Below, piece by piece: positions 904-16,378 of a stretch of DNA of 24,263 nucleotides; the first letter of the stretch is position 1, and every line of letters starts with the position of its first letter. Source of the stretch: a virus; the IMG/VR virus record IMGVR_UViG_3300009528_000122, positions 1 to 24,263 of that record; one strand, given 5' to 3'. The position numbers were made by a program, and so were the translations under genes. The notes under the pieces were generated by a model, which saw only the letters and a list, made by a program, of their open reading frames with translations, did no database searches and was not told the origin of the DNA.

Positions 904-909
904 TAGAAA

Positions 910-1209
910 ATGGACTACCATTGGCACCGCCTAGGTGAGAGGTGTTGGTGTGGGGATTTAACTGCACCTGCGCGGTTCTACTGGAACGGGGAGAAGGAAG
1001 TGTTACAGGAAAAGGTTGAAAGCGCATATATGGCCTATTTAGAGGAGAAGAACCCTGAGTTGTGGGAGAAGCTAAATCCCTTCGAAATCAAGATCGGCCC
1101 AGGGGACGTTGAGGTTCCCCCGCCCGTTACGGTGACCATGAAACCGCAACTTGAAAAAGAATCAAGTTGGGGAGGGAAGCGAGTTGGAGCAGGAAGGCCG
1201 AGGAAGTGA
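910..1209 (+). CDS. Hypothetical protein with GGKRVGAGRP tail, 99 aa
   Basis: ATG 910 is the only reasonable start and has no Shine-Dalgarno; see the box at 892-903. The N-terminus contains His/Cys residues (HWHRLGERCWCG) that could bind a metal. The middle is a charged helix. The C-terminus ends in GGKRVGAGRPRK, a basic Gly-rich motif well known from the N-termini of small terminase and other phage DNA-binding proteins. Here it sits at the C-terminus, which is odd. It may contact DNA; the function is not known. The stop codon overlaps the GTG of the next frame. Confidence 0.7.
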   Translation: MDYHWHRLGERCWCGDLTAPARFYWNGEKEVLQEKVESAYMAYLEEKNPELWEKLNPFEIKIGPGDVEVPPPVTVTMKPQLEKESSWGGKRVGAGRPRK

Positions 1210-1599: not shown

Positions 1600-1608
1600 T
1601 GGTATAAT
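1600..1608 (+). promoter_or_regulatory. Extended -10 promoter TGGTATAAT
   Basis: TGGTATAAT is a perfect extended -10 (TGnTATAAT), with hexamer TATAAT at 1603-1608. No good -35 is visible, as expected for extended -10 promoters. The next ATG is at 1617, only eight bases after the hexamer, so the start site would fall on or beside the start codon. It probably drives the 1617 gene and, if the hairpin at 1791-1815 is read through, the terminase and portal genes. Confidence 0.7.
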
Positions 1609-1616
1609 ACTAGAAA

Positions 1617-1772
1617 ATGGATGACGGCTGGGAGCGCGAGCTAATCCAAGACGTTAAGCAGGCGCTTGGGGTCGTAGCGAAATACGGCACCGAGAAATCC
1701 GTCATCCTCCTTCACTTCGAGGGGAGGAAGTATAAGGGAGTCAAACTGAAGGACTGGGAAAAGAAAACCTAG
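1617..1772 (+). CDS. Small hypothetical protein, 51 aa, probably leaderless message
   Basis: The frame begins at ATG 1617 directly after the TATAAT box and has no Shine-Dalgarno, which fits translation from a leaderless transcript. The 51 residues form an acidic-then-basic protein: an N-terminal helix (WERELIQDVKQALGVVAKYG), a strand (SVILLHFEGRKYKG) and a Lys-rich end. The phage context suggests a small regulator or nucleic-acid-binding protein, but no family is recognised. The stop at 1770-1772 abuts the conserved RNA element that precedes the terminase gene. Confidence 0.6.
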   Translation: MDDGWERELIQDVKQALGVVAKYGTEKSVILLHFEGRKYKGVKLKDWEKKT

Positions 1773-1820
1773 CCCGAAGACACAACGCTAGGGCCTTGGC
1801 GAAAGCCAGGGCCTTTTCAT
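1773..1820 (+). promoter_or_regulatory. Conserved RNA element copy 1: 5' arm plus GAAA hairpin and U-tract
   Basis: The element begins CCCGAAGACACAACGCTAGG (1773-1792). Then comes a stem of 1792-1800 paired with 1805-1813 (one U-G wobble), capped by the GNRA tetraloop GAAA (1801-1804), then TTTT and CATT. It looks like an intrinsic terminator, but it sits right before ATG 1822 of the terminase. Copy 2 at 12390-12440 has an identical 5' arm and a stem that differs by compensatory changes. CTAGC (1769-1773) can also pair with GCTAG (1787-1791), giving a small stem stacked on the hairpin. Confidence 0.75.
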
Positions 1821-1821
1821 T

Positions 1822-3204
1822 ATGTATAAACCCAACAGCGACGCCCAAAGGGATTTCATCCTAGACGATGAGCACGAGGTAGTTGTCGGCTCTGGTGGGC
1901 AGGGGGCGGGGAAGACCCACGCTGCGATCACCAAGGCCATCCGCTATATACGGAAGTACCCAGGTGCCTACGGGATGTTTGTCGCCGCTGACTATGGAAG
2001 GTATCAACTGGGGCTAAAGAGGATTTTCGACAAACTCTGCCCCCCGCAACTGAAACCCCAGATCAACAACCGCCACCAGACGATCTCCCTGAGTAATGGG
2101 TGTGAGATTTATTGGCGGTCTGCGGTGGAACCTAGCTCCACAAGGGCTTCTGAGTTGGCCTTCGCGGTCTATGACGAAGCCGCGCTGAACTCCCCCGCTG
2201 AGGGGTTTGAGTGCTACGACACGTTGCAGGGGAGACTGCGGCAGGGCACGCGGGAGATGTGGGTAGACACGGTTCACGTTCCCGAAGACAACCCCGACGT
2301 GGAGGTCTTATCCGTCGAGGGTCACAGGAGCTTCATCCGAGTTGACTATTTCCCCCAGATGTGGCTCACCACCACTCCTAGGGTGGGGAGTTGGTTCAAC
2401 CAGGTCTTCGACAGTGGAACCGATCCCGAAATCTGCGCGATTTACCAGTTCCAGACTGAGGACAATGAAAAGAACGTCGGTAGGGGCTACCTGAAGCGGC
2501 TTCACAGGGTCTACAAGGGGGCGCTGTTTAACCAGGAGGCGCGTGGGGAGTTCATTGGCGCACAGAACCTCACCTACCCCACGTTCGACCGCCAGAAGCA
2601 CGTCCACGAGCCGCCACAGGACTTCAAGATGGTGGTGGCTGGTGTCGATTGGGGCTGGAACTCTGCCTTCGTCGTAGAGGTCGTGGGGTTCACGTCCACG
2701 GGTGTCGCCTTCGTCATAGATGAGTTCCACGCCGAACAGCACCCCGCCGACCTCATCGTGCGGAAATGTCAGGAGCTAAGAGACAAGCACAAGATCAAGT
2801 ATTTCTTCTGTGACGCCTCAGAACCCACGTTGATCTCCCACCTGGTGCGTTCTCAGATTCCCGCGTTCAAGGCCCATTTCAACAACGACAAGATTTACCG
2901 CGTGGCGGCTGTCGCCTCGCGGTTCGAGAAGGCGGAAGGGACATTCGCCTATCGTCTATACGTCACGCCCACCGCTACGCACCTGATCAACGCCCTGCGG
3001 CTTTCGGGTGAGATGCAGAAGCCTGGGACTGTTACGGAGGTCAAGTCGAAGGCGGGCAGGGACGACCCCATTGACGCCCTTGAGTATGCCGTTACGGACG
3101 GTGAGAGAATCCTGGGCACCCCGTTCTCGGTGGATTACCCCATGACCCCCTCGAAGAACTCGCCTGTGAGGAGTGCTATGAGTATTCCCTACCGAATGGT
3201 TTAG
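1822..3204 (+). CDS. terL: Terminase large subunit (packaging ATPase/nuclease)
   Basis: This 460-residue protein is the DNA-packaging motor. Its ATPase domain shows Walker A GGQGAGKT (residues 25-32), Walker B AFAVYDEA (113-120, D118/E119) and a TTTP coupling motif at 183-186. The C-terminal RNase H-like nuclease domain supplies the expected acids: D276 in AGVDWGWN, D331 in FFCDAS and D418 in DDPIDALEY. Length matches the family, so it looks complete. It would cut the concatemer and pump DNA through the portal encoded ten bases downstream. The ATG lies just after the hairpin U-tract with no clear Shine-Dalgarno, which is unusual for an essential gene and suggests special translational control. 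Confidence 0.95.
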   Translation: MYKPNSDAQRDFILDDEHEVVVGSGGQGAGKTHAAITKAIRYIRKYPGAYGMFVAADYGRYQLGLKRIFDKLCPPQLKPQINNRHQTISLSNGCEIYWRSAVEPSSTRASELAFAVYDEAALNSPAEGFECYDTLQGRLRQGTREMWVDTVHVPEDNPDVEVLSVEGHRSFIRVDYFPQMWLTTTPRVGSWFNQVFDSGTDPEICAIYQFQTEDNEKNVGRGYLKRLHRVYKGALFNQEARGEFIGAQNLTYPTFDRQKHVHEPPQDFKMVVAGVDWGWNSAFVVEVVGFTSTGVAFVIDEFHAEQHPADLIVRKCQELRDKHKIKYFFCDASEPTLISHLVRSQIPAFKAHFNNDKIYRVAAVASRFEKAEGTFAYRLYVTPTATHLINALRLSGEMQKPGTVTEVKSKAGRDDPIDALEYAVTDGERILGTPFSVDYPMTPSKNSPVRSAMSIPYRMV

Positions 3205-3213
3205 GAGATCAGG

Positions 3214-5082
3214 ATGCGAAGAGACGCCTACTCGGACAGACAAATCCCCGACAAGAAGCTGGACGAATACATTCAGCGGGCCAAGGAGTATAACCAGCCC
3301 CGCATTGATCTCCATAAGAAGGCTTACAAGTTCCGCATGATGGAGCAGGAGGTTGCTGTTCCCTTTGGGGCCAGGAAGACGGCAATCGAGCTAAAAAACG
3401 CCTTCGTTCACGATATGTGCCTGCGAACCTCGGCTTCTATCGTTAAGAATCCCCCTCGCATCGAGGCTGTCCCTGGCGACATCACAATGGAGGCTGAGAG
3501 GGTCGCTTCAAGGAAAGAGAGACACACAAAGGGCGCATTGGCGCGGATGAACCAAGAGGCGGGGTTACAACAACAGCCCTTCCCCCGCGCCTCATTCTCC
3601 CAGGTGTCTCTAGGGATGGGCCTCTATGAGTTCCTGTGGAGGCCCGACAGGTGGAGTTATTTCCCTAAAAGGAAGAGGCAGGAAGAGGCCAGGGCTTTCC
3701 TCAAGAGGGTCGAGCAGCATAAACGTCAAGCGCGGTTCCCCTTCTCCTGGCGGGCGCTCGATCCTATGACCTACCACCCCCTCTATGGAGACGAGGGTGC
3801 AGATTTCACCCTTGTTGAAACCTGGAGGCCGCTGGTAGATGTCGAATCGACCTTCGGGGCTAAGAACACAAGGGGCCTCTTGGAAGGAACCGAGAAGACT
3901 AAAGGCGGCCATGTTCCTTCGAGGGTGAAGTTTGAGACGATCTGGACGAACACTCATGTCTTCTATCGTATTGAGGGGAAGACGATCCAGCGGTTTGAAC
4001 ATGGCTATGGCCGCATCCCCTTGTTCGAGGTACGTGGGGCTACAACCGAAGCGAATGTACCAGGGAAGGATTCGCTACCTGTAACCTTTGCCCTTCTCAA
4101 GTTTGCGCCCCTTATCGACACCCTCTTTACTACGTTGACCAACGCCTTGCTCGTCAGCGGCATCCCAACGCCGTTCGTGGAGCCTGACGAACGAAACCCG
4201 ATGGTGGCACACCTCTTCGGGCCTGATGGTAGGCCGCTGCCGATTGATATTGAGATCGGGGCCATGAACATTGCGCCAGGGAAGATCAGTATGCCCCTTG
4301 CCCAAGGGATGCCCAACATGCTCATCGAATCGATCAACGCCGTTATGGGGCTGGCTGAGTCGAGCATGTTGCCCAAGGTCTTAAGGGGCGAGGGGGTTGG
4401 CTCCGACTGGTCGGGGTATCTCGCCCAAACCGTACTCCATATCGTTCTCACCCTCCTGGGGCCGATTGTCTCTAATCACGAAGCGGCCTTGGCAGACATG
4501 GTGAAGTTCTACTGGAGCCTTATCGAAGACAAAGCACAGACAGATGTCTGGGTCTGGGCAGCGCAGAGGCCGAGGGGCGGAAAGTGGGCACCTTTAGGGC
4601 CAGAAGATATAGACGGATTCTATGAATGTCGCGTTCACCTTCGGCCCGCGCTGCCCAGAGACGAACACCTGCGAGCACAGACAGGGCTTCAACTCTGGCA
4701 GTCAGGGGCCATCGACCTCAGAACCTTCCTTACCGACTGGCTGGACATTGAGTACCCCGAAGAGGTCGAGGAAAAGATACAGCTAGAACGGCTATTCAAG
4801 AGAGAAGAGGTAGACCAAATCCTCCTGACACAGCTTATCGAGAGGTTGGCGGGGGAGAGTCCCGCGATAGCGGCGATTGGGGAGCAGTTGGGGCTTATAG
4901 CGCCTGAAGGGATGCCTGGGATGCCTATGTTACCGCCTGAGCTACAACAGGGGCTTCCTGGCGCATTTGGCGCTGGGATGGCACCTGGGCCACCAGGGGG
5001 CATGGGGGCCGTGCCCAACATTGGCGGGCGACCACCAGGCTATCCGTCTGCGCTACCTGGTGGACCCCGCATGATTCCGTAG
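3214..5082 (+). CDS. Portal protein
   Basis: This 622-residue protein directly follows the terminase, with a GGAGA ribosome site in the ten-base gap. Supporting features are the length, a charged helical N-terminus (RIDLHKKAYKFRMMEQEVAVPFG), a mixed alpha/beta body with an aromatic WRPDRW region, and a long central helical region (about 290-440). The C-terminus (about 565-622) is disordered and rich in Gly, Pro and Met. The portal ring is the packaging channel at one capsid vertex and docks the terminase and neck. Identification rests on position, size and overall pattern rather than a single motif, but I see no other candidate. Confidence 0.85.
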   Translation: MRRDAYSDRQIPDKKLDEYIQRAKEYNQPRIDLHKKAYKFRMMEQEVAVPFGARKTAIELKNAFVHDMCLRTSASIVKNPPRIEAVPGDITMEAERVASRKERHTKGALARMNQEAGLQQQPFPRASFSQVSLGMGLYEFLWRPDRWSYFPKRKRQEEARAFLKRVEQHKRQARFPFSWRALDPMTYHPLYGDEGADFTLVETWRPLVDVESTFGAKNTRGLLEGTEKTKGGHVPSRVKFETIWTNTHVFYRIEGKTIQRFEHGYGRIPLFEVRGATTEANVPGKDSLPVTFALLKFAPLIDTLFTTLTNALLVSGIPTPFVEPDERNPMVAHLFGPDGRPLPIDIEIGAMNIAPGKISMPLAQGMPNMLIESINAVMGLAESSMLPKVLRGEGVGSDWSGYLAQTVLHIVLTLLGPIVSNHEAALADMVKFYWSLIEDKAQTDVWVWAAQRPRGGKWAPLGPEDIDGFYECRVHLRPALPRDEHLRAQTGLQLWQSGAIDLRTFLTDWLDIEYPEEVEEKIQLERLFKREEVDQILLTQLIERLAGESPAIAAIGEQLGLIAPEGMPGMPMLPPELQQGLPGAFGAGMAPGPPGGMGAVPNIGGRPPGYPSALPGGPRMIP

Positions 5083-5091
5083 GAGTGTGTG

Positions 5092-5370
5092 ATGGCAGAG
5101 AACCCGCTTGAGCCTCAAGTAAAGGCTGCCGTTCAAGAGATGCGGCGGCGCATGGACATCATCGACCGTGCCGTGCCTGAGAAGACGATCCCCGTCGGTC
5201 ATCGGCAACTGTCCGCGATGGAACTCTACATGAGGGACGCCTTCGTCCCAGGCTTCAGACAAGAAGCTATCGGCCAGGCAGAGGTTGAAGACATCGCCAA
5301 GTACCTCCGCACGATCACGAAGGGTAAGAAATCATTTTTGAGGAAGCATGGCAACGTACAGCCAGGATGA
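5092..5370 (+). CDS. Small hypothetical head protein, 92 aa
   Basis: ATG 5092 is seven bases after the ribosome site TAGGAG, which overlaps the portal stop; an in-frame GTG at 5089 is less likely. The product is charged and helical (VQEMRRRMDIIDRAVPEK, then QAEVEDIAKYLRTITKGKKSFLRKHG) with no cysteines or membrane segments. Its 3' end overlaps the next gene by 23 bases, implying coupled translation. By position it may be a minor head or core-assembly protein; no family is recognised. Confidence 0.75.
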   Translation: MAENPLEPQVKAAVQEMRRRMDIIDRAVPEKTIPVGHRQLSAMELYMRDAFVPGFRQEAIGQAEVEDIAKYLRTITKGKKSFLRKHGNVQPG

Positions 5371-6520
5371 AATTGAAGAGATCATCCGCACTGTAGCGGA
5401 ACAGTACGGAATCCCCTACTGGGTGGCGTTGGGTATCGCGGGCGGGGAGAGCGGCCTGAACTGGGGCCTGTCTGGTGACAACGGCAAGTCTTACGGGCTA
5501 TTCCAGATTCACGAAACTAACATTGGTGATGTAAACAAACGGAAAGACCCTTGGTTCAACGCAACGTGGGCGATGCAGAACAGTGTTGGGCCTGGGTATC
5601 AAAGCGCTCAAGCGCAGGGGCTAACCGAGCCTACGCAAGTCTTGAGGCACGTTTGGCAGGTTGGGCAGAGGGCCGCAGGTTGGGCCATCGAGCAGAACCT
5701 TCCGAGCGCGGTTCAGTGGGCAGGTCAGGCAGAGGATTGGCCTGGAGGAGTGGTAACGATGGCAGAGACGCCAGACAAAGAGTTAAGGGAGCAGAAGGTT
5801 ACGGGCGAGGTTACGCCGCCTAGCGATCCCACTAAGGCGCTGGAGTGGGCCTTCGAGGTGATCCGCAAAGCTGTTGCCGATCCCCAGAGTCCTGAAGCTA
5901 GCCTTTGGACGGTTGCCAATCAGGTTATTCAAGACGCCATGCAGGGGCCGCAGGTGACAATCCAGACTCAGGCTTATGACATTGCGGACGAAGAGGCCAA
6001 CCGTATCTACCAGAAATACATGGGGGAACTCTCGGCGGGGAATCTCCAGTTGAACGAAGCCCTAGCGGGTATTCAGCGCGAATCGGCTGTTACTACTCGC
6101 GCTGAGACTACGGGCCAGGAGCAGAGGGCCTTCTGGGACATGATGTTGGCCCCTGGCACGGAATACCAGCCTGGATATGGGCCAGAAAGCCCGATTGGGG
6201 CGCTTCGGCAGCAGCGTGGCGCTGGCTATCAACCTCGCCCCGTAACCCAGGTGCCGACAGCAGCCCTCAGCCCGCAGACCTATCTTCAGCAGGCACAGGA
6301 ATCATTCCCAGAGGTGCCGCCAGTGACCATCCCGCCCTATCCGCAGATGCCTATGCCTACGGGTATGGGGCCGACGACAACGAGTACGACGGCTCCTGGT
6401 GGCTTTGATGTTGATTCCTTCATGGAGGCGTACAACCGAGTGTTTAGCGGGGCGGGCGCTGGTTCGGCTCAAGGGGTTTATTCTGAACTTCTACCTCCAG
6501 AATTAAGAAGGCAATGGTAA
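5348..6520 (+). CDS. Virion lytic transglycosylase (SLT-like), 390 aa
   Basis: The N-terminal ~120 residues form a goose-lysozyme/SLT-like domain: a helix IIRTVAEQYGIPYWVALGIAG, the catalytic glutamate E34 in GESGLN, then NGKSYGLFQIHE (residues 45-56) forming the GLFQI substrate-cleft motif. This enzyme cleaves peptidoglycan glycan strands without hydrolysis. The rest is Gln/Pro/Thr-rich and probably structural (residues 250-365 low complexity), ending in a predicted helix. There is no signal peptide or holin nearby, and it lies between portal and capsid genes. It is therefore more likely a virion-borne enzyme that opens the wall during DNA entry than a late lysis protein. GAGGAAGC precedes ATG 5348. 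Confidence 0.85.
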   Translation: MATYSQDEIEEIIRTVAEQYGIPYWVALGIAGGESGLNWGLSGDNGKSYGLFQIHETNIGDVNKRKDPWFNATWAMQNSVGPGYQSAQAQGLTEPTQVLRHVWQVGQRAAGWAIEQNLPSAVQWAGQAEDWPGGVVTMAETPDKELREQKVTGEVTPPSDPTKALEWAFEVIRKAVADPQSPEASLWTVANQVIQDAMQGPQVTIQTQAYDIADEEANRIYQKYMGELSAGNLQLNEALAGIQRESAVTTRAETTGQEQRAFWDMMLAPGTEYQPGYGPESPIGALRQQRGAGYQPRPVTQVPTAALSPQTYLQQAQESFPEVPPVTIPPYPQMPMPTGMGPTTTSTTAPGGFDVDSFMEAYNRVFSGAGAGSAQGVYSELLPPELRRQW

Positions 6521-6532
6521 GGGAGAGATAAG

Positions 6533-7984
6533 ATGCCATTCAACATACCACTTCCAGCAGGTGCCGCAGGCGCTGATCCTACGACCCTAGCACGCGAAGG
6601 GCGAGAGCTTGAAAGGCGTATGCGGAGTAGTGCTAGCGGCTATTCCGCAGGTACGGCGCTAAAGCCTGGCACAACGGGCATGGGCTACACGCCTATCTAT
6701 CCCCAGGCCCAGCAGTGGGATCGGCAGCAGTCTTTCTATGAGGAATACAATCTAAGACGCCTCGAACAGTTTGATAGAGACCTCGCTAATAGCATTCGGA
6801 TGGCCGAGATGGATGCTGCCTCTAATGCCCAGGTCGCTGGAATCTACGCCAGCGCGGGCATGGCGGAGGCTGCGGAAGCGGCGCGGGCAAAGGTAGAGGC
6901 GGCAAACATCGCTGCTCAGGCTATGCGTGACGTGTCCCAGATGGATAACGCCACGAGGATGCAGATCGCGGAACTCCAAGCGGAGGTCGAGCGCGAGCGC
7001 ATAGGGATGGAGCGCCGCATACAGGAGAGTAGGGAGTTCGGGCAGCCTATCAACCTCGCGTCCTACATTCACTACATGTCACAGGGGCCAGGCACGGCTG
7101 TTCCTGGCGTACTTCCACAGCAGGCCCCGCCTACACCTGTGGCCGCTACGGGCACAACGCCTATCACGAGCATGGCGAGTCTGTACCAGACGGGGATGCC
7201 AGGTCAAGCTCAGATGGGAACACCCGCTGCAATCGTTGGTGAGGGAGGCCCAGAGTTGGCTCAGGCCACCCCACAGGGCCTACAGGTCACGCCTATCGCG
7301 TCCCAGCAGGTAAAGCCTCTACAGAGGATGCTGGGCATACCAGGGATGCAGGGCGGCGGCTTAGTCGGAATGGCTGCGGGCCAGACGCTAGGCACGGTGC
7401 TGGGGGGTAGGGCAAGAAGGTCGCCACAGCAGAGCAGTTTTGGGAATATCTCGAATCGGCTTCGCCCTGCGCCGACTGACTACTCACGGTTTGCTGGGCA
7501 ACGAGGGGGGTACGGCCAGCAAGTTACGCGTGTCCAGCCGTATGGAGGGGCATCCGTGACGTATGGCGGAGGCCCGCCCCGCAGGGAAGCTGCTGGTGGT
7601 GCTGCAACGCCTACCGCTGTAACCCCTGGCGGAGGAGGAACACCAGTGATCTCTTATCACCAGCCGCCCCCAGGCGGCGGGGGTGGTATTACGCCAACAA
7701 CCCCAGGCGGAGGGACGGATTGGCAGGCGTTCATAGACCAACTCTACGGGAACGTGCCAGCGTACTCGTGGACGGGCGGACTGGAGTTGCCTGAAATTGG
7801 CGTCTCGCTTCCCTACGCGCCCTTCGGCCAGAACGTTACCGATTGGCAGCGGCTTCCTTGGCAGGTTCAACGTGGGCGAGAGTCCATGTGGCGGGCGCTG
7901 GGCATCATGCCTGAGACAGCGGCGGGGATGATGTACGCTGCCGCACCTACGGGAATCGCACAGCCCGTGCCGAGGTGGGGTTAG
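6533..7984 (+). CDS. Gln/Ala/Gly-rich virion protein with tape-measure-like motif, 483 aa
   Basis: A strong site (GGGAGAGATAAG) precedes ATG 6533. Residues about 65-170 are a long Ala/Glu/Arg/Met helix suited to a coiled coil. The rest is low-complexity Gly, Pro, Gln and Thr, with Gly-rich runs around residues 330-395. IVGEGGPEL at residues 234-242 matches the 'VGE-GPEL' motif often seen near the end of tape measure proteins. The protein is too short to be a classic tape measure, so an internal/ejection protein of a short tail is the better inference. Its stop overlaps the stop of the minus-strand gene by four bases (TTAG, 7981-7984). Confidence 0.75.
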   Translation: MPFNIPLPAGAAGADPTTLAREGRELERRMRSSASGYSAGTALKPGTTGMGYTPIYPQAQQWDRQQSFYEEYNLRRLEQFDRDLANSIRMAEMDAASNAQVAGIYASAGMAEAAEAARAKVEAANIAAQAMRDVSQMDNATRMQIAELQAEVERERIGMERRIQESREFGQPINLASYIHYMSQGPGTAVPGVLPQQAPPTPVAATGTTPITSMASLYQTGMPGQAQMGTPAAIVGEGGPELAQATPQGLQVTPIASQQVKPLQRMLGIPGMQGGGLVGMAAGQTLGTVLGGRARRSPQQSSFGNISNRLRPAPTDYSRFAGQRGGYGQQVTRVQPYGGASVTYGGGPPRREAAGGAATPTAVTPGGGGTPVISYHQPPPGGGGGITPTTPGGGTDWQAFIDQLYGNVPAYSWTGGLELPEIGVSLPYAPFGQNVTDWQRLPWQVQRGRESMWRALGIMPETAAGMMYAAAPTGIAQPVPRWG

Positions 7985-8283
7985 GATTGCCGACGACAGA
8001 TAACCATGATTGAGGACATTGCTGTCTTGGAGTCGGGATCAAGTCCACAGGCTCGCATCATTCGTTTTGTTGATGGATCGCGTGGGCCTGGGAATTGCGC
8101 TAGGCCGCAAAGAATATCCTTATTGCAGGTGATTTGCGGTTCTGGTGTGGGTGAAGGGCGTACAATTCTAGGTTGCGATGTGCCACTATCGTCTCCAAGA
8201 AGGGCGTTGGTTCCAAATCCTGCACCAAACCCGATACCCGTCAGAGCAGTGACGACTATTACAGCGGCTATGACACGTTTCAT
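7981..8283 (-). CDS. Minus-strand small secreted or membrane-anchored protein, 100 aa
   Basis: This is the only convincing minus-strand gene. It has a textbook ribosome site, GGAGG (8294-8290), six bases before its ATG, and an extended -10 box upstream. The product starts MKR followed by a long apolar stretch (residues 4-29), i.e. a signal peptide or single membrane anchor. A Ser/Pro/Thr linker (about 30-50) and a small domain with four cysteines (C53, C59, C79, C96) follow, suited to two disulphides outside the membrane. It is probably a moron-type gene that alters the host envelope, for example superinfection exclusion; that role is inferred. A plus-strand frame over the same bases has no ribosome site. 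Confidence 0.7.
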   Translation of the reverse strand: MKRVIAAVIVVTALTGIGFGAGFGTNALLGDDSGTSQPRIVRPSPTPEPQITCNKDILCGLAQFPGPRDPSTKRMMRACGLDPDSKTAMSSIMVICRRQS

Positions 8284-8303
8284 AACGAACCTCCAACACG
8301 GGG

Positions 8304-8312
8304 ATCATAACA
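8304..8312 (-). promoter_or_regulatory. Extended -10 promoter for the minus-strand gene
   Basis: Read on the minus strand, the sequence is TGTTATGAT, an extended -10 (TGnTATGAT). It is 20 bases upstream of the ATG at 8283, leaving room for a short leader with GGAGG. No clear -35 is seen. It lies in the gap before the 8328 gene, so the minus gene appears to be separately transcribed. Confidence 0.5.
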
Positions 8313-8327
8313 CGTTAAGGGTGTCCT

Positions 8328-11300
8328 GTGGCTAATTCGTGGCTCTACGAGTCAGAAGAACAACGGCGCCAGCGAGAACCTAGTATCTTTGAGGTTCTTG
8401 CGAAGCGCATAATCGAACGCCATAAACAGGCATTAGTGGCTGCTGACATTACTGTTGACCCTCGTGATATAGCCTGGCGGAAGCAGCAAGAGAAACAGAG
8501 GGCGCAGACTGCGAAATGGCAGGAAGGGGGGCTGCCCAAACTTGCTCAGAGGCCAGGTTACGTCGATGAAGGAAGGCCCCTCCTAGTTAGGGAAGCTGTA
8601 GGCGGGCTGCAACGGGCCGCTGCCCAAGGCGTGATACCGACAGCTGCGGCTATGCCTGAAGTAGCAAGGGGTGTGGGAGAATGGGCTATTACGCCCAGGA
8701 TGACAGAGCAGCAGTATGAACAGATACATGGCGTCCCTGTCGTCGGCCCTATAGCTGCACCGCATCTAGCAGGGCTAACAAGCCCTCTAGGAACCTATGC
8801 TACGGCACTGATGCCTCAGTTAACGGCTGGCATGGTTGCTGGCGGCGTGGCTGGTGGCGTTGCTGGCAAGGGCCTAGAAGCGGCGGGCGTTCCTGTTGCG
8901 GACGTAGGCCCTGTGCGTGTGGGGCCTAGTGGCGTGTTGGAGACGGCGGGGATGCTTGCGGGGCCAGCGGCGATTCCCGCCCTCGAACGGGCTGCGATGC
9001 GTGGCGTTGCACAACTCCCTACTGCTGCGCGTGCGGGTGCTGAACGTGTGATGCCGACGGTTCGACGCTTGGCGGTAGAGGAAATAGGGGGGCCGAAGCC
9101 GAAACTTGGCCGCCCCCTTAATGTAGCAGAGACGAAAGAACTGAAGGAATTAACAGCCGTAGCCTTTAAGGAGCGCACGGCAGCACAACAGAATCGCCTA
9201 ACCAAACTAGCGATGCGGGAAGGATGGGCTAGGCGCGAGGCCCCAACAGCACCCCCTGCTCCCAAGCCCGCAGCGCCTAAAGCGCCAGCACAGATTCCCA
9301 AGCCAACGACTCGTGTCTCTCGCCCCCGTCCAACGGGCGAGGTTCCCCCAACAGAACCGCCTAAACCCCCAAAGCCGCCGAAGGGCAAAGGCCCACCACC
9401 AGAGGAGCCTAGCGGTGAACTGTTGGCACGCTTCCTAGAAGGCCATCACGACGTTCAGGCTGCCAAGGCAGACTGGGCGAAGTTCCAGGGCGGCCTAGCC
9501 CTTCGCGGAAAGCAGATCGACATCTGGATGAAGGAAGGGTCTAGCAGGGCAAAGATACCTACTGGCGGCGAACGCACACCAGAAATGGAGCAGTTATACA
9601 AGGCGCTTCATGGTGAAGGGAGGCCGCCTGCCAAGTATCAGTCTGTCTACGATGATGTTGAGCCGTTCATGCGTGAGCAGGAGCGCCGTCTTTTGGCTGA
9701 CGTTCCTGAGTTCGAGCAAAGGATGTTGAAAGACCCGACTTACTTTACGCGGAAGTGGCGCAACTGGGAGATATTCGAGGACATAGCTAGAGAGGCTAAG
9801 GGCCAGCCGACTCGCGGCCCCGCGAAACCTGGGCGTAGAGTCGGGATGCCAGGCCAGGTTCCCAAGGTCATACCGCGCCGAACAATGCCTAGAACGTTCT
9901 CTGAGGCGTTAGAGGTTGGCGGCGAACCCCTCACCTGGAACCCTTATGAGATGGCAGCGATCCACGCAGCCGAGCTAGAGGAGTATCGTTTCGTTGCGGT
10001 CTTGATCCAGGCGTGGAAAGCACAAGGACGCACTCTGCCAGTGTCGCAAGCACCGCGTTCTTGGGAGACTCCGCCATATAAGGCGTTTCAGGGCAAGCCC
10101 TATACTCGCCAACCGAAGGTAGTTGAGGGCGCAGTAGAGGAGCCAGTTGGGATACGTTGGTCTGAGCCCCTAGCCGTTTCGCCAGAGGATAACAAGATGC
10201 TCCCTCACATCCTCGGTTTCGGTTTTGAGGGCTTTGAGAACTCGGCGGCCTACGTTACGAGCGTGTTCAAACGCGCCAAGGTCTTGTTTGGTCTATTTCA
10301 GTATTGGGACTTGCAGAACCGTACACTTCTTCGTGCTGCATCTCAGGCGGTGAAGCTGGCGGCTAAGGGCGATCTAGTGGGCGCTGCTGCTGAGGCCAGG
10401 GCTATCCCTGCCGCAGCTAAGGCTTGGCAAGGTGCCTTCTACCCACCCGCTAGGAACAGGCTCTGGAAGCAACTCCTGAATGATCCAGAGATAGCGATGG
10501 CGATTGAGGAAGGTGGGCTTCCTATTGGTGGCCTCGATGTCTGGAAGCGCACGATGAGATCATCGCTGGAGCCTGATCTGGTTATGAAGGCTCCCATCAT
10601 TGGGGAGATTCCCACTGCACGTTTGCCAATGGGTTTGCGGCAGGCTACCGAAGGCACACAGAAGGTAATGAATGGGATGTACCGCTACGTCGCCAGCGGC
10701 CTTTATGACTCGGCGCACCCTCAATACTGGTCTGCCTTCTACAAGAGCATTTTCAAGGAGCTACGGGCGAAGTATCCACAGATGGCCGAACGTCAGGTGG
10801 CAGCGCAGGCGGCAAAAGAAACGAATGTCTTAATGTCTAGCATCCCCGATTGGCACTCGGTCTTGAACCCACGCCTACGCCAACTGGGGCGCGGTGTTGC
10901 CTTCTCGGTTAATGAGGGCGAGGCTTGGATGCGCATGATCCCTCGTGCCATCAGGGGTAAGAACCCAGAGCTTTACCGCCAGCAGTGGGCGGCTTATCTG
11001 CTCGGAGCGTTGACTTTCGCTGAGGTTGTCAACTACGCCATGACGGGAGAACCTTTGACGGTAAACCAACTATCCCCGATAGTCATGCGGGACGGCAAAC
11101 CTACATACAACTCTAACTTTGCCCGTCCACGACTCGATGGCGATGGGCCTATCGGCAAGCATCTAAACCTTGAGGCTCCGCTTGGGCGACACATCTACCT
11201 TGACTTCATGGGGCAGGCCGACACACCGTTCCGTATGCTGAATCCACAGTTCTTCGTTATGACTCGCCTCTCGCCTCAACTCTCAGTTTTCATTCAGGAG

Positions 11301-12359
11301 CTTCAAGAAAAGCGGTTCTTTGGGCAACAGGAATTGAACTCGTTACAGGAGAAGGTATTGTTTGCGGGTGAGCAGTTGCTTGCCCCTATCCCACTCGTGG
11401 GCTTCGGCCAAGAACGCGAACGCATCGGGAACGTTGGTGCCATTATCCAGGCTACAGGCTGGAACGTCTCCTCTGAAAGACTAGGCGAACTCTTCGCCCG
11501 CCGCTACAAAGAAGAGACTGGCAGAGAGTGGGACGAAACTACAGTTATCCAGCGTCGCGAGGACGTAGCCGCACACCCTAAATTGCAGGAGATCAAGGCC
11601 GAGCGTTTGGAGAGGGGCCTAGAGTACGGCAGCGCCTTCAGTGAACGCACGGCCTACATGGACAACCTAAAGACCCAACAGAAGGAAGCCATACTGGAAT
11701 CGTTGCGAACCGATCCTACGGGTGCTAAGGCAGCCGAACTTGTCAAGGAATCTAAGGCGCAGAGGGCGCAAACCTGGCAGGTACTCAGCGATAGCCTTGG
11801 CTTGGATGGGCAGGCCCCGAAAGAGTCAGAGGTTCTACCCGACTTCTACGCTGACAAGTATATGGCTGTCGAGCGAGAGATGGACGTGTTTGGGCAGTCC
11901 ACCGACGAAGAGTGGGAACGCTATGAAGTCGAACAGCAGCAGATACTCCAAGAGGCCAAGGCCGCTGGTGTAGATGTCAACTATATCAAGAAACGTGCTA
12001 CTACCTTCTGGGATGATCCCCAGCTTGACTTGATAGAAACCTACTACCAGCAGGCCAAGGAGTCCATGCGCGAATATCAAGCCATCCCGCGCTTTATTGG
12101 CGTGCCCGACGACCTAGCGAAACGGGCTGAGGCGATCTTGCAGCAGGCGCAGGCGATGGTGGCAACTCAGGGTGTTCCCCTAGACCACGCCATCGCGGTA
12201 GTCGGGAAGGACGACCCGCAGGCGGCGATGATCGCAGCGATGGAAAGCCGTTTACGAAACCCGATGCGCACCCTGTTCTGGAAGCAACACCCCGAACTCT
12301 CGGTGTTCTGGGGGCGCGGCGCACCCGCTTACTTGACACCAGAGGCAGTCGGCGTATAA
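8328..12359 (+). CDS. Giant virion protein, 1343 aa (probable internal/ejection protein)
   Basis: The start is GTG 8328 with a modest AAGGG site six bases upstream. The layout is: a charged helical N-terminus (1-80); Ala/Gly/Val-rich segments at about 135-245 that could be membrane-active; and a Pro/Lys linker at about 304-361. A large helical body with aromatic-rich stretches follows to about 1010, then a Gln/Glu-rich coiled-coil C-terminus. Large proteins of this pattern beside a virion transglycosylase are typical of ejection proteins that leave the head with the DNA to form a conduit across the envelope; parts resemble polyvalent phage proteins. There is no identifiable catalytic motif. 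The stop codon lies inside the TATAAT at 12355-12360. Confidence 0.75.
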   Translation: MANSWLYESEEQRRQREPSIFEVLAKRIIERHKQALVAADITVDPRDIAWRKQQEKQRAQTAKWQEGGLPKLAQRPGYVDEGRPLLVREAVGGLQRAAAQGVIPTAAAMPEVARGVGEWAITPRMTEQQYEQIHGVPVVGPIAAPHLAGLTSPLGTYATALMPQLTAGMVAGGVAGGVAGKGLEAAGVPVADVGPVRVGPSGVLETAGMLAGPAAIPALERAAMRGVAQLPTAARAGAERVMPTVRRLAVEEIGGPKPKLGRPLNVAETKELKELTAVAFKERTAAQQNRLTKLAMREGWARREAPTAPPAPKPAAPKAPAQIPKPTTRVSRPRPTGEVPPTEPPKPPKPPKGKGPPPEEPSGELLARFLEGHHDVQAAKADWAKFQGGLALRGKQIDIWMKEGSSRAKIPTGGERTPEMEQLYKALHGEGRPPAKYQSVYDDVEPFMREQERRLLADVPEFEQRMLKDPTYFTRKWRNWEIFEDIAREAKGQPTRGPAKPGRRVGMPGQVPKVIPRRTMPRTFSEALEVGGEPLTWNPYEMAAIHAAELEEYRFVAVLIQAWKAQGRTLPVSQAPRSWETPPYKAFQGKPYTRQPKVVEGAVEEPVGIRWSEPLAVSPEDNKMLPHILGFGFEGFENSAAYVTSVFKRAKVLFGLFQYWDLQNRTLLRAASQAVKLAAKGDLVGAAAEARAIPAAAKAWQGAFYPPARNRLWKQLLNDPEIAMAIEEGGLPIGGLDVWKRTMRSSLEPDLVMKAPIIGEIPTARLPMGLRQATEGTQKVMNGMYRYVASGLYDSAHPQYWSAFYKSIFKELRAKYPQMAERQVAAQAAKETNVLMSSIPDWHSVLNPRLRQLGRGVAFSVNEGEAWMRMIPRAIRGKNPELYRQQWAAYLLGALTFAEVVNYAMTGEPLTVNQLSPIVMRDGKPTYNSNFARPRLDGDGPIGKHLNLEAPLGRHIYLDFMGQADTPFRMLNPQFFVMTRLSPQLSVFIQELQEKRFFGQQELNSLQEKVLFAGEQLLAPIPLVGFGQERERIGNVGAIIQATGWNVSSERLGELFARRYKEETGREWDETTVIQRREDVAAHPKLQEIKAERLERGLEYGSAFSERTAYMDNLKTQQKEAILESLRTDPTGAKAAELVKESKAQRAQTWQVLSDSLGLDGQAPKESEVLPDFYADKYMAVEREMDVFGQSTDEEWERYEVEQQQILQEAKAAGVDVNYIKKRATTFWDDPQLDLIETYYQQAKESMREYQAIPRFIGVPDDLAKRAEAILQQAQAMVATQGVPLDHAIAVVGKDDPQAAMIAAMESRLRNPMRTLFWKQHPELSVFWGRGAPAYLTPEAVGV

Positions 12360-12360
12360 T
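12333..12360 (+). promoter_or_regulatory. Consensus sigma70 promoter TTGACA-16-TATAAT
   Basis: TTGACA at 12333-12338 and TATAAT at 12355-12360 both match consensus fully, with a 16-base spacer. The -10 box contains the stop codon of the giant virion protein, so the promoter overlaps coding sequence. It would start transcription near 12367, producing a leader with the conserved RNA element and then the scaffold and capsid genes. Confidence 0.85.
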
Positions 12361-12389
12361 ATCTAGATAGCAGAATACGGAATTCTAGA

Positions 12390-12440
12390 CCCGAAGACAC
12401 AACGCTAGGGTCGTGCCGAAAGGCGCGGCCCTTTTTCATT
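12390..12440 (+). promoter_or_regulatory. Conserved RNA element copy 2: 5' arm plus GAAA hairpin and U-tract
   Basis: The first 21 bases (12390-12410) are identical to 1773-1793. The stem 12408-12417 pairs with 12422-12431 (ten pairs including two U-G wobbles) around a GAAA tetraloop (12418-12421), followed by TTTTT and CATT. The stem sequence differs from copy 1 but pairing is kept, so the RNA fold appears to be under selection. It lies between the consensus promoter and the ribosome site GGAGG of the scaffold gene. As a strong intrinsic-terminator shape it may attenuate, or be processed to stabilise, the capsid message. Confidence 0.8.
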
Positions 12441-12451
12441 TGGAGGAATTC

Positions 12452-13264
12452 ATGGCGGATAAGACTTCCGAGGCCACGGTTCAGGCGGAACAGGTGGAGG
12501 CCAAGGTCACATCTACTGAGAAGCCTGTAGAGGCTGTCCCAGAGGTAGAGCCTAAGCCTACATCCGAGACTCCTGAGCCAAAGGTACAGGAGGCTGAAGA
12601 GCCAACGAAGCTCACACAGGAGGAATGGCTGGAACAAATTGCGGCGAAGCCTGAAGAGGATCGCAAGGAGCTTCTGAAACATGGCGCATTTCAATCGCTT
12701 GTTCAAGGCGAGGTCGACGTTGGCCGAGACGCACAGCGCCGACAGACTGAGGCCCAGCTTGAGACGCAACTAGCGCAGGGGCAGCAGATCGCTACGACAG
12801 CGAAGACCTGGGACGACTTGAGCGAGGAACAGCGCGTAGCTGCGCTCAGGTCAATCGTGTTCAGCGCCCAGAATCAGGGCGCTGTGCAGGTGGTCAATGC
12901 GCTTGACGAAGCCTTTGGGCGCGAGAAGTGGATCACGATGACCGAAGAGGAGAAGCGCGTTCTCGGTGCCCAGATCGGCAGCGACCCTAACGCCTCAGTC
13001 GAGTATTTCCTTCGGGCGATGAGGGGAAACATGATGAGCCGCAACGAGAGCCAGCAGCAGATCAAGGATGAGGTTAACGCGCAACTAGAAGCGAAGTTGG
13101 CCTCGTCACGGAAGGCGGAGCCAACGCACCCAGCAATGGGGCCGACTGAGCCTGTCGAGGAGGAATTGGAATTCGACAAGGTTATGAAAGACCCCAAGGC
13201 AAGTGGTGAACAGAAGGCAGACGCCTTTGAGAAAAGGTTTGGCTACCGCCCAAGAAACATCTAA
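12452..13264 (+). CDS. Scaffolding protein, 270 aa
   Basis: ATG 12452 follows GGAGG (12442-12446) by five bases; an in-frame GTG at 12413 would read through the terminator hairpin and is rejected. The protein has a Glu/Pro/Val/Lys-rich disordered N-terminus (residues 1-60), a Gln/Glu coiled-coil middle (about 90-125) and a charged C-terminus with a basic end (KRFGYRPRNI). Composition, size and position directly before the capsid gene are typical of scaffolds, which guide procapsid assembly and bind the capsid protein through a C-terminal helix. No protease motif is seen, so it may be released intact or cut by an enzyme encoded elsewhere. Confidence 0.85.
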   Translation: MADKTSEATVQAEQVEAKVTSTEKPVEAVPEVEPKPTSETPEPKVQEAEEPTKLTQEEWLEQIAAKPEEDRKELLKHGAFQSLVQGEVDVGRDAQRRQTEAQLETQLAQGQQIATTAKTWDDLSEEQRVAALRSIVFSAQNQGAVQVVNALDEAFGREKWITMTEEEKRVLGAQIGSDPNASVEYFLRAMRGNMMSRNESQQQIKDEVNAQLEAKLASSRKAEPTHPAMGPTEPVEEELEFDKVMKDPKASGEQKADAFEKRFGYRPRNI

Positions 13265-13274
13265 GGAGAATTAA

Positions 13275-14171
13275 ATGACGACAGGCAGAACTACAACTGG
13301 TTCACTAGCTGATAGCCTGCCGACCATTATTGCCGAGGCGCGAGTAGTTCGGGAGTTCCCTGGACAGGTGCCGAAGCTGGCCGACAGATATCGGCTTTCC
13401 GAGGGCGAAGGACTCGATTGGAACGAGATCGCTCTTAGCCAGATGGAAGCTCAGAACGTCACCGAGACAACGCTTCTTGACAACCCCCAGCAGTACGCCG
13501 ATCTCTTGCTGACCATCACGCCTACTGTGACGGGAATCACGACCATCGTGACAGACCGCACCTACAGGCGGATCAGCAAGAACGTTGCGGGACAGATGGG
13601 GGGAGTTGCCCAGGCCGCTATCGAGCGGAAGAAGGACGAAGACGGTCTGACGACACTTGATGGTTCCACCATCAACCTCGGAGCAACGGCGACCCCTGTG
13701 GAGTTCTCGGACTTCGCTCACGCCGTTGACAGGGTGAGCATCGGTGACGCTAACGAGCCGAGCAACAGCCCGATCTACGGAGTGTTGCACGCCTACCATC
13801 TCACCGACATCAAGGATCAGATCGTGGCTGGTGTTGGAACCTACGCCGTTCCTTCGGGAATGACAGAGGAAACCTTCAAGCGCGGGTTCAGCGGCACGCT
13901 CGGTGGGGCCAACATCTTCGTGGACGGCAACATCCCCACTAACCAGGGCGGCGTCACCGCCGACGCTAACTCCTACATCTTCGCCCGCTTCGGGCTGATT
14001 CTCGTAGAGGGCCACAGTCCCCGCACCGCCACCAAGCGGCGTGAGGAATACGGCGGCGGGGCCGACCAACTCTTTCTCTACGACGAGTATCAGTACGGCG
14101 AGCGCCTAGCGGCAGGCACCACGGGTGCCTTCATCGCTGAGATTCTTGGCGACGCGACCGCTCCTGCGTGA
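13275..14171 (+). CDS. Major capsid protein (HK97-like fold expected), 298 aa
   Basis: TAAGGAGAATTAA gives a strong ribosome site before ATG 13275, ten bases after the scaffold stop. The sequence has a short N-arm, then WNEIALSQMEAQNVTETTLL and ITPTVTGITTIVTDRTYRRIS in the region expected to form the E-loop and spine helix. A domain rich in Gly/Asn/Asp turns follows, ending in the strand pair YGERLAAGTTGAFIAEILGD. Size (about 300 residues), the preceding scaffold and the following decoration-like genes support the call. The fold is inferred from context and pattern. It would form the icosahedral shell. Confidence 0.85.
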   Translation: MTTGRTTTGSLADSLPTIIAEARVVREFPGQVPKLADRYRLSEGEGLDWNEIALSQMEAQNVTETTLLDNPQQYADLLLTITPTVTGITTIVTDRTYRRISKNVAGQMGGVAQAAIERKKDEDGLTTLDGSTINLGATATPVEFSDFAHAVDRVSIGDANEPSNSPIYGVLHAYHLTDIKDQIVAGVGTYAVPSGMTEETFKRGFSGTLGGANIFVDGNIPTNQGGVTADANSYIFARFGLILVEGHSPRTATKRREEYGGGADQLFLYDEYQYGERLAAGTTGAFIAEILGDATAPA

Positions 14172-14917: not shown

Positions 14918-15007
14918 GTGGGGGTCGAGGTTGTGAGCGGGACGACCGCAATGACGATGGATGTTGACTATCTGTTGGTCGAGGCCAACAGGGATTGGAC
15001 GGTATAG
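14918..15007 (+). CDS. Possible 29-aa ORF resembling the last strand of the lectin fold
   Basis: A GTG at 14918, preceded by GGAAGGG (14904-14910), opens a 29-codon frame. Its product (VGVEVVSGTTAMTMDVDYLLVEANRDWTV in two overlapping parts: VGVEVVSGTTAMTM and DVDYLLVEANRDWTV) reads like a final beta strand of a LamG-type protein, similar in pattern to the end of the preceding gene (SDYIFATG). It may be a vestige of a duplicated gene end, a frameshift-derived tail, or a tiny gene. The stop at 15005-15007 is just before ATG 15010. Confidence 0.3.
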   Translation: MGVEVVSGTTAMTMDVDYLLVEANRDWTV

Positions 15008-15009
15008 AG

Positions 15010-15693
15010 ATGGGAGGTCAAGCTGACGTAAACCTTGTAACTGCACGGCTTGACGTGCGTAAAGCCACCACGCCCCAGCGTGAAACGGAAGACGGCCATC
15101 TAGGGCCGCCACGCGCCTTGCGTGACGGTACGCTGGTAAACAGTCCCTACATCACAGCGCTAGCTATGGAGGGACGGGTCTACATCTCCTCCGACGCAGA
15201 CCAGAACGACCTGGTGACGGGGCAGGGGAGTTACGCCGACACTACCCCGACGCTGATGCTGGGCGTACCAGAAGGTGTTGCGGCGATCCCCCTAGGTGTC
15301 TTTCTGTCACAGGATGGCACAGTGGCTGGCGGGGAAATCCTCGTCCACATCGAGATCGACCACGTTGTGCGCTACGCGAGTGGGGGTACTAGTGAGGCGG
15401 TGCTTTCTTCGAGAACGGACATGCCCATACCGAACGCTTGCAGGCTCTACAGTGGGGCTACCGCTGCTGCTGGTTACGGCATTCTGGTCTTCGGCGGCAA
15501 CTTCGTTGAGGACGTTGTGCCCGCCGTAGCCGATAACATCAACTGGCACCAGTTCCTATGGACGCCTACTGTGCCCATGTTTCTAGTCGGCCCAGCGGCT
15601 CTACTTATCTACACCTACTCCGCCGCAGGCGCTGGCCCCAGCTACTACTGGAATGTCAAGTGGGCAGAGATTCCCAGTTCGGATTTGGAGTAG
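15010..15693 (+). CDS. Structural protein, tandem paralogue A, 227 aa
   Basis: ATG 15010 is chosen because both paralogues then start MGG; a TTG at 14995 is in frame but has no ribosome site. The protein is beta-rich with long matches to the next gene, including PLGVFLSQDGT, GGEILVHIEID, RYASGG, RTDMP, INWHQFLW, PMFLVGPAAL and WAEIPSSDL. It has no signal peptide or known catalytic motif. A pair of abundant-looking beta proteins behind the capsid and lectin-like genes suggests head decoration, fibre or neck components; the exact role is unknown. Ribosome site is weak (GTATAGAG). Confidence 0.75.
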   Translation: MGGQADVNLVTARLDVRKATTPQRETEDGHLGPPRALRDGTLVNSPYITALAMEGRVYISSDADQNDLVTGQGSYADTTPTLMLGVPEGVAAIPLGVFLSQDGTVAGGEILVHIEIDHVVRYASGGTSEAVLSSRTDMPIPNACRLYSGATAAAGYGILVFGGNFVEDVVPAVADNINWHQFLWTPTVPMFLVGPAALLIYTYSAAGAGPSYYWNVKWAEIPSSDLE

Positions 15694-15697
15694 TGAG

Positions 15698-16378
15698 ATG
15701 GGAGGAACAGCAGACCTAAAGCTTCTAACAGCAGACCTTGAGGTGCGGAAGGCTGTCACGCCTCAACGCGAGACGGCGGACGGTCATGTGGGGCCGCCGA
15801 GGGCCATACGTGATGGCTCACTGGTGATGAGTCCCCATGTCTGGGCGCTGGCGAAGGAAGGGCGAGTCTTCATCTCCGCCGACTCCGACCACGCTGCGGT
15901 TCTCACTACGCAGACCTCCTATGCCGATACCTCTCCTGCGCTTCTCTTGGACGTGCCGAAGGGTACTACAGCCATTCCGCTGGGCGTCTTTCTCTCGCAG
16001 GACGGGACGATAGCTGGTGGTGAGATTCTAGTCCATATCGAGATCGATGAGGTCGTGCGCTATGCAAGTGGGGGCGCTAGGGAGAAGGTGCGTTCTTCGC
16101 GCACCGACATGCCTCTGCCGAACACCTGCGATCTCTACAGCGGGGCTACCGCCGTTGCTGGTGCTGGGATTCAAGTCTTCTCTGGGAACTTCATCAACAG
16201 TTGCACCCCTGAGGTGGCGCAAGACATCAACTGGCATCAGTTTCTGTGGGTACCCGACGTACCGATGTTCCTGGTTGGGCCTGCGGCCCTGAACGTCTAC
16301 GCCTATGCCAGCGACCCTGGCCCTGAGTATTACTGGTACGTCATGTGGGCGGAAATCCCGAGTAGCGACCTGAAGTAG
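15698..16378 (+). CDS. Structural protein, tandem paralogue B, 226 aa
   Basis: This starts at ATG 15698, four bases after the stop of copy A, with GGAG (15687-15690) in the copy A tail as ribosome site. It is alignable with copy A over its whole length, with clearly more than half of the residues identical. The N-terminus (MGG-ADL), the PQRET-DGH-GPPRA segment and the C-terminal WAEIPSSDL block are almost the same. Divergence concentrates in the central region (about residues 65-90) and around residues 170-180. Keeping both copies suggests two distinct positions or ligand specificities in the particle. Confidence 0.75.
   Translation: MGGTADLKLLTADLEVRKAVTPQRETADGHVGPPRAIRDGSLVMSPHVWALAKEGRVFISADSDHAAVLTTQTSYADTSPALLLDVPKGTTAIPLGVFLSQDGTIAGGEILVHIEIDEVVRYASGGAREKVRSSRTDMPLPNTCDLYSGATAVAGAGIQVFSGNFINSCTPEVAQDINWHQFLWVPDVPMFLVGPAALNVYAYASDPGPEYYWYVMWAEIPSSDLK

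What the first reader, a model, noticed from the sequence alone, without database searches (positions are those of the whole stretch)
1773..12440. Same structured RNA element before the terminase and before the scaffold genes
An identical 21-base arm (starts 1773 and 12390) is followed in both places by a GAAA-capped hairpin whose stem sequence differs but still pairs, then a U-tract and CATT. Retained identity in the arm with compensatory change in the stem argues for a functional RNA, not chance. Both sit at the 5' side of key structural operons. It may be an attenuator, a terminator-antiterminator pair or a processing/stability element. A small stem (CTAG/CTAG, longer in copy 1) can stack on it, giving a two-stem shape that recalls cis-acting antitermination RNAs.
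Basis: partly seen in the sequence, partly recalled or inferred. Interest (0 to 1): 0.78.

Follow-up and report, generated by a model that had tools for sequence, protein, structure and literature searches.

The report
Paired antiterminator switches in phage late operons
An uncultured phage, and two relatives found here, carry the same small RNA switch in front of their DNA-packaging genes and their capsid genes; it looks able to stop transcription early unless a phage-specific factor, perhaps a tiny protein encoded just upstream, holds it open.

Summary
In detail: an identical 21-mer at 1773-1793 and 12390-12410 abuts two different GAAA-capped hairpins followed by T-tracts. The hairpins are intrinsic terminators lying between a promoter and the first late gene. 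The 21-mer is mainly the 5' part of a second, mutually exclusive hairpin: [A/G]CCC-GAAGACACAACGCTA-GGG[T/C], whose 3' strand is the terminator's 5' strand.

Two related phages in IMG/VR (terminases 41-43% identical to the window's) have the same pair of elements at the same two places. Each has its own arm sequence, nearly or fully identical between its own two copies (G001 GGCC-GATAGCAGGAAGCGA-GGCC; G002 G[G/A]CC-RAGAGGACAACCGA-GG[C/T]C). The arm stem is 100% paired in all six copies and covaries. Only 1 of 102 other terminators has such a partner.

Upstream of copy 1 all three phages carry a homologous 51-58 aa ORF of no known family, leaderless in two. Best reading: RAT/BglG-like attenuation, with the small protein as the likely antiterminator that opens packaging and capsid operons together. 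The RNA switch is well supported by sequence; the identity of the trans-factor and the direction of the switch are inferred. No Rfam family matches. Verdict: new variant of a known kind.

The parts
1600..1608 (+). extended -10 promoter TGGTATAAT for the leader of copy 1 (no good -35)
   Evidence: one of only two TATAAT on the + strand of the window
1617..1772 (+). small ORF, 51 aa, probably leaderless; stop codon abuts the arm; homologous in both relatives; candidate antiterminator
   Evidence: AF2 alpha-beta-beta
1772..1794 (+). copy 1 antiterminator hairpin GCCC-GAAGACACAACGCTA-GGGC (21-mer at 1773-1793)
1790..1817 (+). copy 1 intrinsic terminator (AGGGCCTTGGC-GAAA-GCCAGGGCCTT + TTTT), shares 1791-1794 with the antiterminator
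1822..3204 (+). terminase large subunit, first structural-operon gene after copy 1
   Evidence: phrog_2, E 5.3e-29
12333..12360 (+). consensus sigma-70-type promoter TTGACA-16-TATAAT for the leader of copy 2
   Evidence: 12 of 12 matches
12388..12412 (+). copy 2 antiterminator hairpin GACCC-GAAGACACAACGCTA-GGGTC (21-mer at 12390-12410)
12407..12436 (+). copy 2 intrinsic terminator (AGGGTCGTGCC-GAAA-GGCGCGGCCCT + T-tract), shares 12408-12412 with the antiterminator
12442..13264 (+). Shine-Dalgarno GGAGGA and 270-aa ORF from ATG 12452 (putative scaffold), first gene after copy 2
13275..14171 (+). conserved 298-aa ORF (putative major capsid protein), 84% identical in G001
   Evidence: identity as capsid protein inferred only

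Best explanation
Both sites are transcription-attenuation switches of the antiterminator/terminator kind. RNA polymerase starts at a promoter just upstream and transcribes arm A, a 14-15-nt purine-rich loop, strand B, strand C and a U-tract. By default B pairs with C (about -15 to -22 kcal/mol) and forms an intrinsic terminator, so transcription stops before the terminase operon and before the scaffold/capsid operon. When a phage-specific trans-acting factor binds the loop and stabilises A:B (only about -6 to -8 kcal/mol alone), the base of the terminator stem is taken away and polymerase reads through. Having the same arm in both leaders makes packaging and capsid operons answer to one factor. 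The most likely factor is the 51-58-aa basic alpha-beta-beta protein encoded between the copy 1 promoter and the copy 1 element. It is made before the terminator is reached, so it would give a positive-feedback delay switch for late genes. Shown from sequence: the promoters, terminators, mutually exclusive arm hairpin with covariation, two copies per phage, and conserved ORF. Inferred: direction of the switch, the existence of a factor and its identity.
For: Six copies in three phages at the same two places. The arm stem is 100% paired with two of four pairs changed on both sides; covariation 0.533 against 0.165 in shuffles (1/500 reach it) and at most 0.30 when slid. In WIN copy 2 and G002 copy 2, B carries a U that pairs Watson-Crick with an A in the arm but only G.U in the terminator, so the arm is selected beyond the terminator (sequence). 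1 of 102 terminators in other held loci has a 4-bp GC-rich partner at loop 12-17, against 6 of 6 here. The arm is constant within a phage but differs between phages. The copy 2 arm follows its own genome's copy 1, although the nearby capsid gene of WIN is 84% identical to that of G001. The element keeps its distance to the terminator, not to the promoter (TATAAT to terminator 187 against 52 nt in WIN, 206 against 49 in G001), which argues against a DNA operator. The small ORF is conserved at the same place in all three phages (G001-G002 46%, E 2e-14; WIN-G002 38% over 34 aa, E 2e-7) and no homologue was found in other held loci.
Against: Only three phages, so covariation rests on few independent changes. 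No RNA or 3'-end data. A:B is far weaker than B:C, so without a binder the switch would stay off. The loop fold is not identical in the three phages. The small protein has no recognisable RNA-binding family and no close known fold. WIN and G002 are fragments, so another factor could lie outside them. A distant relative (G418) has promoter plus hairpin at both operons without arm or small ORF, so the hairpins may have another role there.
Confidence: 0.6

Rival explanations
1. Same attenuator, but the trans-acting factor is something else (another phage protein, a host RNA-binding protein, or a phage sRNA); the small ORF is merely the first gene of the operon or a leader peptide whose terminating ribosome covers arm A in copy 1.
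For: The smORF stop codon abuts arm A (0 nt in WIN, 2-3 nt in G001, about 10 nt in G002), so translation could modulate copy 1. WIN and G002 are incomplete.
Against: Copy 2 has no upstream ORF, so ribosome coverage cannot be the common mechanism. The loop has no antisense partner in its own genome. The element is absent from 393 Dehalococcoidia genomes, which argues against a host regulon. G001 (44.6 kb) shows no known N, Q, NusG or CAT/ANTAR protein among 33 ORFs scanned.
Confidence: 0.25
2. Processive antitermination: the arm hairpin is a nut/boxB-like or put-like recruitment site that modifies polymerase, and the overlapping terminator is a test terminator, as at lambda PR'-tR'.
For: Promoter-proximal terminators at late operons; phage-specific arms recall phage-specific boxB/N pairs (lambda and P22; PMC6023938).
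Against: The arm overlaps the terminator base exactly in all six copies and covaries with it, which a recruitment site would not need. A two-stem put-like shape is not conserved. No second RNA motif is shared between copies.
Confidence: 0.1
3. The hairpins are constitutive terminators or 5'/3' mRNA-end stabilisers or insulators, and the arm is a protein-binding or processing site unrelated to termination.
For: Hairpin plus T-tract next to a late promoter occurs in more distant relatives without the arm.
Against: A constitutive terminator between the strongest promoter and the capsid operon would silence it. Arm-terminator covariation and the 6/6 against 1/102 contrast.
Confidence: 0.1
4. The leaders are small regulatory RNAs: short terminated transcripts with a conserved seed loop acting in trans.
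For: A roughly 60-70-nt leader transcript with a conserved exposed 14-15-nt loop and a terminator has the shape of an sRNA (sequence).
Against: No complementary target above shuffled level in the phage genomes; a seed does not require the covarying arm stem.
Confidence: 0.05

Closest known systems
RAT elements of the BglG/LicT/SacY antiterminators
   Same: An imperfect hairpin just upstream overlaps the 5' arm of an intrinsic terminator and is mutually exclusive with it; protein binding stabilises it and permits read-through (PMC3369936). Asymmetric internal loop predicted in G001 and G002 arms.
   Different: No CAT-domain protein found; different RNA sequence; in phage late operons rather than sugar operons; arm sequence differs from phage to phage; candidate factor is about 55 aa without a sensor domain.
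ANTAR (AmiR/NasR/EutV) leader RNAs
   Same: The hairpin next to the terminator overlaps its proximal strand and acts as antiterminator; several leaders per genome share the element (PMC3369936).
   Different: ANTAR targets have two hairpins with loops sharing A1 and G4; here a single hairpin with a 14-15-nt loop region is conserved.
lambda PR'/tR' with Q, and lambda/P22 N with nut-boxB
   Same: Late phage operons controlled by a promoter-proximal terminator (Q, own knowledge); small RNA hairpins recognised by phage-specific small basic proteins (N-boxB, PMC6023938).
   Different: Q acts through DNA at the promoter and N through boxB plus Nus factors, both processively (own knowledge); here the RNA element overlaps the terminator itself and occurs at two operons.
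HK022 put RNAs
   Different: put is a two-stem RNA acting directly on polymerase without terminator overlap (own knowledge); the second stem here is not conserved.
Xp10 p7
   Same: A very small (7 kDa) phage protein that suppresses termination (PMC4513864).
   Different: p7 acts by binding RNA polymerase rather than a leader hairpin; no sequence comparison was made here.

Membership tests
Intrinsic terminator | GC-rich stem-loop directly followed by a T-tract | tested here: met
   all six copies
Terminator/antiterminator attenuator (general kind) | two mutually exclusive hairpins sharing a strand | tested here: met
Terminator/antiterminator attenuator (general kind) | regulated read-through in response to a signal or factor | not testable with these tools
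   needs transcription assays
RAT/BglG-LicT system | CAT RNA-binding domain protein | tested here: not met
   no Pfam hit in the small ORFs; none among 33 G001 ORFs, though the factor could lie in unsequenced parts of WIN and G002
RAT/BglG-LicT system | antiterminator hairpin overlapping terminator, with asymmetric internal loops | tested here: inconclusive
   overlap met; one internal loop predicted in G001/G002, less clear in WIN
ANTAR leader RNA | two tandem hairpins, both loops with A1 and G4 | tested here: not met
   only one upstream hairpin is conserved in alignment A3
HK022 put-like RNA | two conserved adjacent stems | tested here: not met
   CTAG stem 66.7% paired, 312/500 shuffles as high
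lambda N/nut | boxA plus boxB upstream of distant terminators, Nus-dependent | not tested
   only the overlap geometry was examined, which differs
Any Rfam family | score at or above the curated gathering score | tested here: not met
   none; best sbrA 19.7 bits against a cut-off of 45

The most novel reading that the evidence does not exclude
A self-contained phage late-gene switch: a new family of about 55-aa, often leaderless, RNA-binding antiterminators and its cognate hairpin, diverging together from phage to phage like N/boxB but acting by direct terminator displacement, with the regulator made ahead of its own terminator so that packaging and capsid operons open together by positive feedback, in phages probably of Dehalococcoidia (Chloroflexota).
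Probability: 0.42. Interest if true: 0.75.

Novelty: new variant of a known kind. Interest (0 to 1): 0.6.

Why it matters
If true, it would give phages of a largely uncultured bacterial class a late-gene timing mechanism built from a tiny protein and a hairpin of about 23 nt, and a natural set of orthogonal RNA-protein antitermination pairs. It also makes a testable prediction: each small protein should open only its own phage's leaders.

Tried and rejected
Exact loop 15-mer in IMG/VR: 24 hits, none in a leader or terminator context. Degenerate arm pattern: the G001 copies and two chance hits. Covariance model over about 1 Mb of relatives: only the six known copies. Model over 393 Dehalococcoidia genomes: plain terminators, and one GC-rich hit (29 bits, L195) that looks like chance in what appears to be coding sequence. 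More phages by terminase, portal and small ORF: only G001 and G002; 69% terminase in a Dehalococcoidia MAG contig that starts inside the gene, so the leader is not seen. Antisense target of the loop: none. Rfam weak hits: below cut-off. CTAG/CTAG stem: rejected. Fold search of the small protein: no Foldseek hit at E <= 0.001 and no Z >= 5. Phage database with small ORF, portal or capsid gene: no match.
Full report
What is there. The 21-mer CCCGAAGACACAACGCTAGGG occurs at 1773-1793 and 12390-12410 only (0.01 expected with up to 3 mismatches). Each copy runs into a GAAA-capped 11-pair hairpin and a T-tract; these are the top-listed terminator-like sites of the scanned 20 kb and the strongest two of the window in my own scan. 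Copy 2 has a 12-of-12 sigma-70-type promoter TTGACA-16-TATAAT at 12333-12360, so its transcript would meet the terminator after about 40 nt and before the SD and ATG (12452) of the 270-aa ORF. Copy 1 has an extended -10 TGGTATAAT (1600-1608); a 51-aa ORF starts 8 nt after the -10 (ATG 1617, so probably leaderless) and stops at 1772, touching the arm; terminase starts at 1822. These are the only two TATAAT hexamers on the + strand of the window. The hairpins therefore sit inside leaders, where they would stop their own promoter's transcripts.

The second hairpin. The arm is not just a repeated word. In copy 2, GACCC pairs with GGGTC across the loop GAAGACACAACGCTA; in copy 1, GCCC pairs with GGGC across the same loop. 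The 3' strand of this hairpin is the 5' strand of the terminator, so the two structures exclude each other. Computed energies are about -6 to -8 kcal/mol for the arm hairpin and -15 to -22 for the terminator, so the terminator wins unless the arm hairpin is held by something.

Relatives. The 298-aa ORF at 13275 found relatives in IMG/VR. Two of them, G001 (IMGVR_UViG_3300031554_000002, 44.6 kb) and G002 (IMGVR_UViG_3300031707_001847, 16.2 kb), also share the terminase (41-43%) and portal (50-52%). Both carry two terminators with the same kind of upstream partner, before the terminase operon and before the scaffold ORF. G001: GGCC-GATAGCAGGAAGCGA-GGCC in both copies. G002: GGCC-AAGAGGACAACCGA-GGCC and GACC-GAGAGGACAACCGA-GGTC. 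So the arm is constant or nearly so within a phage and different between phages, while place and architecture are constant. In G001 an extra ORF lies between copy 1 and the terminase, so the element marks the head of the operon rather than the terminase itself.

Covariation and controls. On the six-copy alignment A3 the four arm pairs are 100% standard pairs. Two of the four have changes on both sides (GC/AU; GC/CG/AU), covariation score 0.533 against 0.165 in shuffles (1 of 500 reaches it) and at most 0.30 with the partner slid. In WIN copy 2 and in G002 copy 2, a U in the shared strand pairs Watson-Crick with an A in the arm but only as G.U with the terminator's 3' strand; in both cases the arm has followed the shared strand. 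Of 102 distinct terminators in the other loci held, 1 has a 4-bp GC-rich upstream partner at loop 12-17; all six elements do. A covariance model finds the six copies at E <= 2e-11 and nothing else in about 1 Mb of relatives, nor convincingly in 393 Dehalococcoidia genomes. RNAalifold alone picks the terminator as consensus, as expected for a two-state element. Only three phages are available, so these counts rest on few independent events.

RNA or DNA signal. The distance from the -10 to the terminator is 187 against 52 nt in WIN and 206 against 49 nt in G001, while the arm-terminator register is fixed in all six. With the covariation this argues for an RNA element acting at the terminator, not an operator. 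WIN and G001 share an 84% identical capsid-position ORF but 29% scaffold and 41% terminase, so the genomes are mosaic; yet the copy 2 arm of each matches its own copy 1. That is what a genome-specific trans-acting factor would impose.

Candidate factor. The ORF before copy 1 is homologous in all three phages: G001-G002 46% over 48 aa (E 2e-14), WIN-G002 38% over 34 aa (E 2e-7); no shuffle of 5000 reaches either score, while WIN-G001 alone is weak (34 of 5000). It looks leaderless in WIN and G001, and in G002 its GTG overlaps the upstream gene's TGA. All three are basic (pI 8.0-9.3). AlphaFold2 gives alpha-beta-beta for two of them (pLDDT 83.6 and 71.5), without a convincing PDB relative and without Pfam, NCBIfam or PHROG match. 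Among held loci and the databases searched it was found only in the three phages with the arm. A factor encoded before its own terminator would be made from the start and would then release both operons: a positive-feedback delay. This step is inferred.

Wider family. A more distant relative, G418 (IMGVR_UViG_3300032020_000178), also has a TTGACA promoter followed at once by a GC hairpin and T-tract before both its terminase operon and its scaffold ORF, without arm or small ORF. Other relatives have promoter plus terminator before the scaffold ORF. Promoter-proximal hairpins at late operons may therefore be older than the arm, and their original role may differ.

Comparison. Among known systems the geometry is that of RAT/LicT and of the P2 hairpin of ANTAR leaders (PMC3369936): a protein-stabilised hairpin that shortens the terminator stem. 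It is a member of neither: no CAT domain found, and no dual hairpin. The phage-specific arms recall N/boxB (PMC6023938), and the tiny factor recalls Xp10 p7 (PMC4513864), but the overlap with the terminator differs from both. No Rfam family matches. Known antitermination proteins were not seen among 33 ORFs of G001. The host is probably Dehalococcoidia: a MAG contig of that class has a 69% identical terminase and a 74% identical portal.

Limits. No expression data; the direction of the switch (factor opens, rather than closes) is an inference from energies and from the logic of late operons; scaffold and capsid labels rest on gene order and size. Confidence: attenuator-type RNA switch about 0.8; small ORF product as its factor about 0.5.

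Noticed in passing
window 15002-16305: Tandem duplication (688-nt spacing, 71-73% identity) giving two paralogous ORFs of 232 and 241 aa downstream of the putative capsid gene.
   Followed up: no
L184:18873 and L184:7272 (minus strand): Distant relative G418: hairpin plus T-tract beginning at about +1 of TTGACA promoters before both terminase and scaffold operons, with similar stems (AAGGGGCCAGC / AAGGGGGCCAGTCC) but no arm.
   Followed up: partly
window 904-930 and 1611-1637: Two ORF starts share TAGAAAATGGA; the 99-aa ORF at 910 may also be leaderless (no clear -10 there).
   Followed up: partly
L073 (SOKG01000275.1): Contig binned with a Dehalococcoidia MAG carries terminase (69%) and portal (74%) of this phage group, hinting at the host.
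   Followed up: partly
window 7981-8283 (minus): Minus-strand ORF with a signal-peptide-like start (MKRVIAAVIVVTALTGIG...) in an otherwise plus-strand cluster, in the gap between 7984 and 8328.
   Followed up: no
L125/L126/L158 about 860 nt before the capsid-position ORF: GGTC-GATTCA-GACC just before a perfect 10-bp terminator in the scaffold leader; another possible arm of a different design.
   Followed up: no
window 23104-24261: ORF running off the window end; N-terminal half matches phrog_1574 (E 3.5e-21, unknown function).
   Followed up: no
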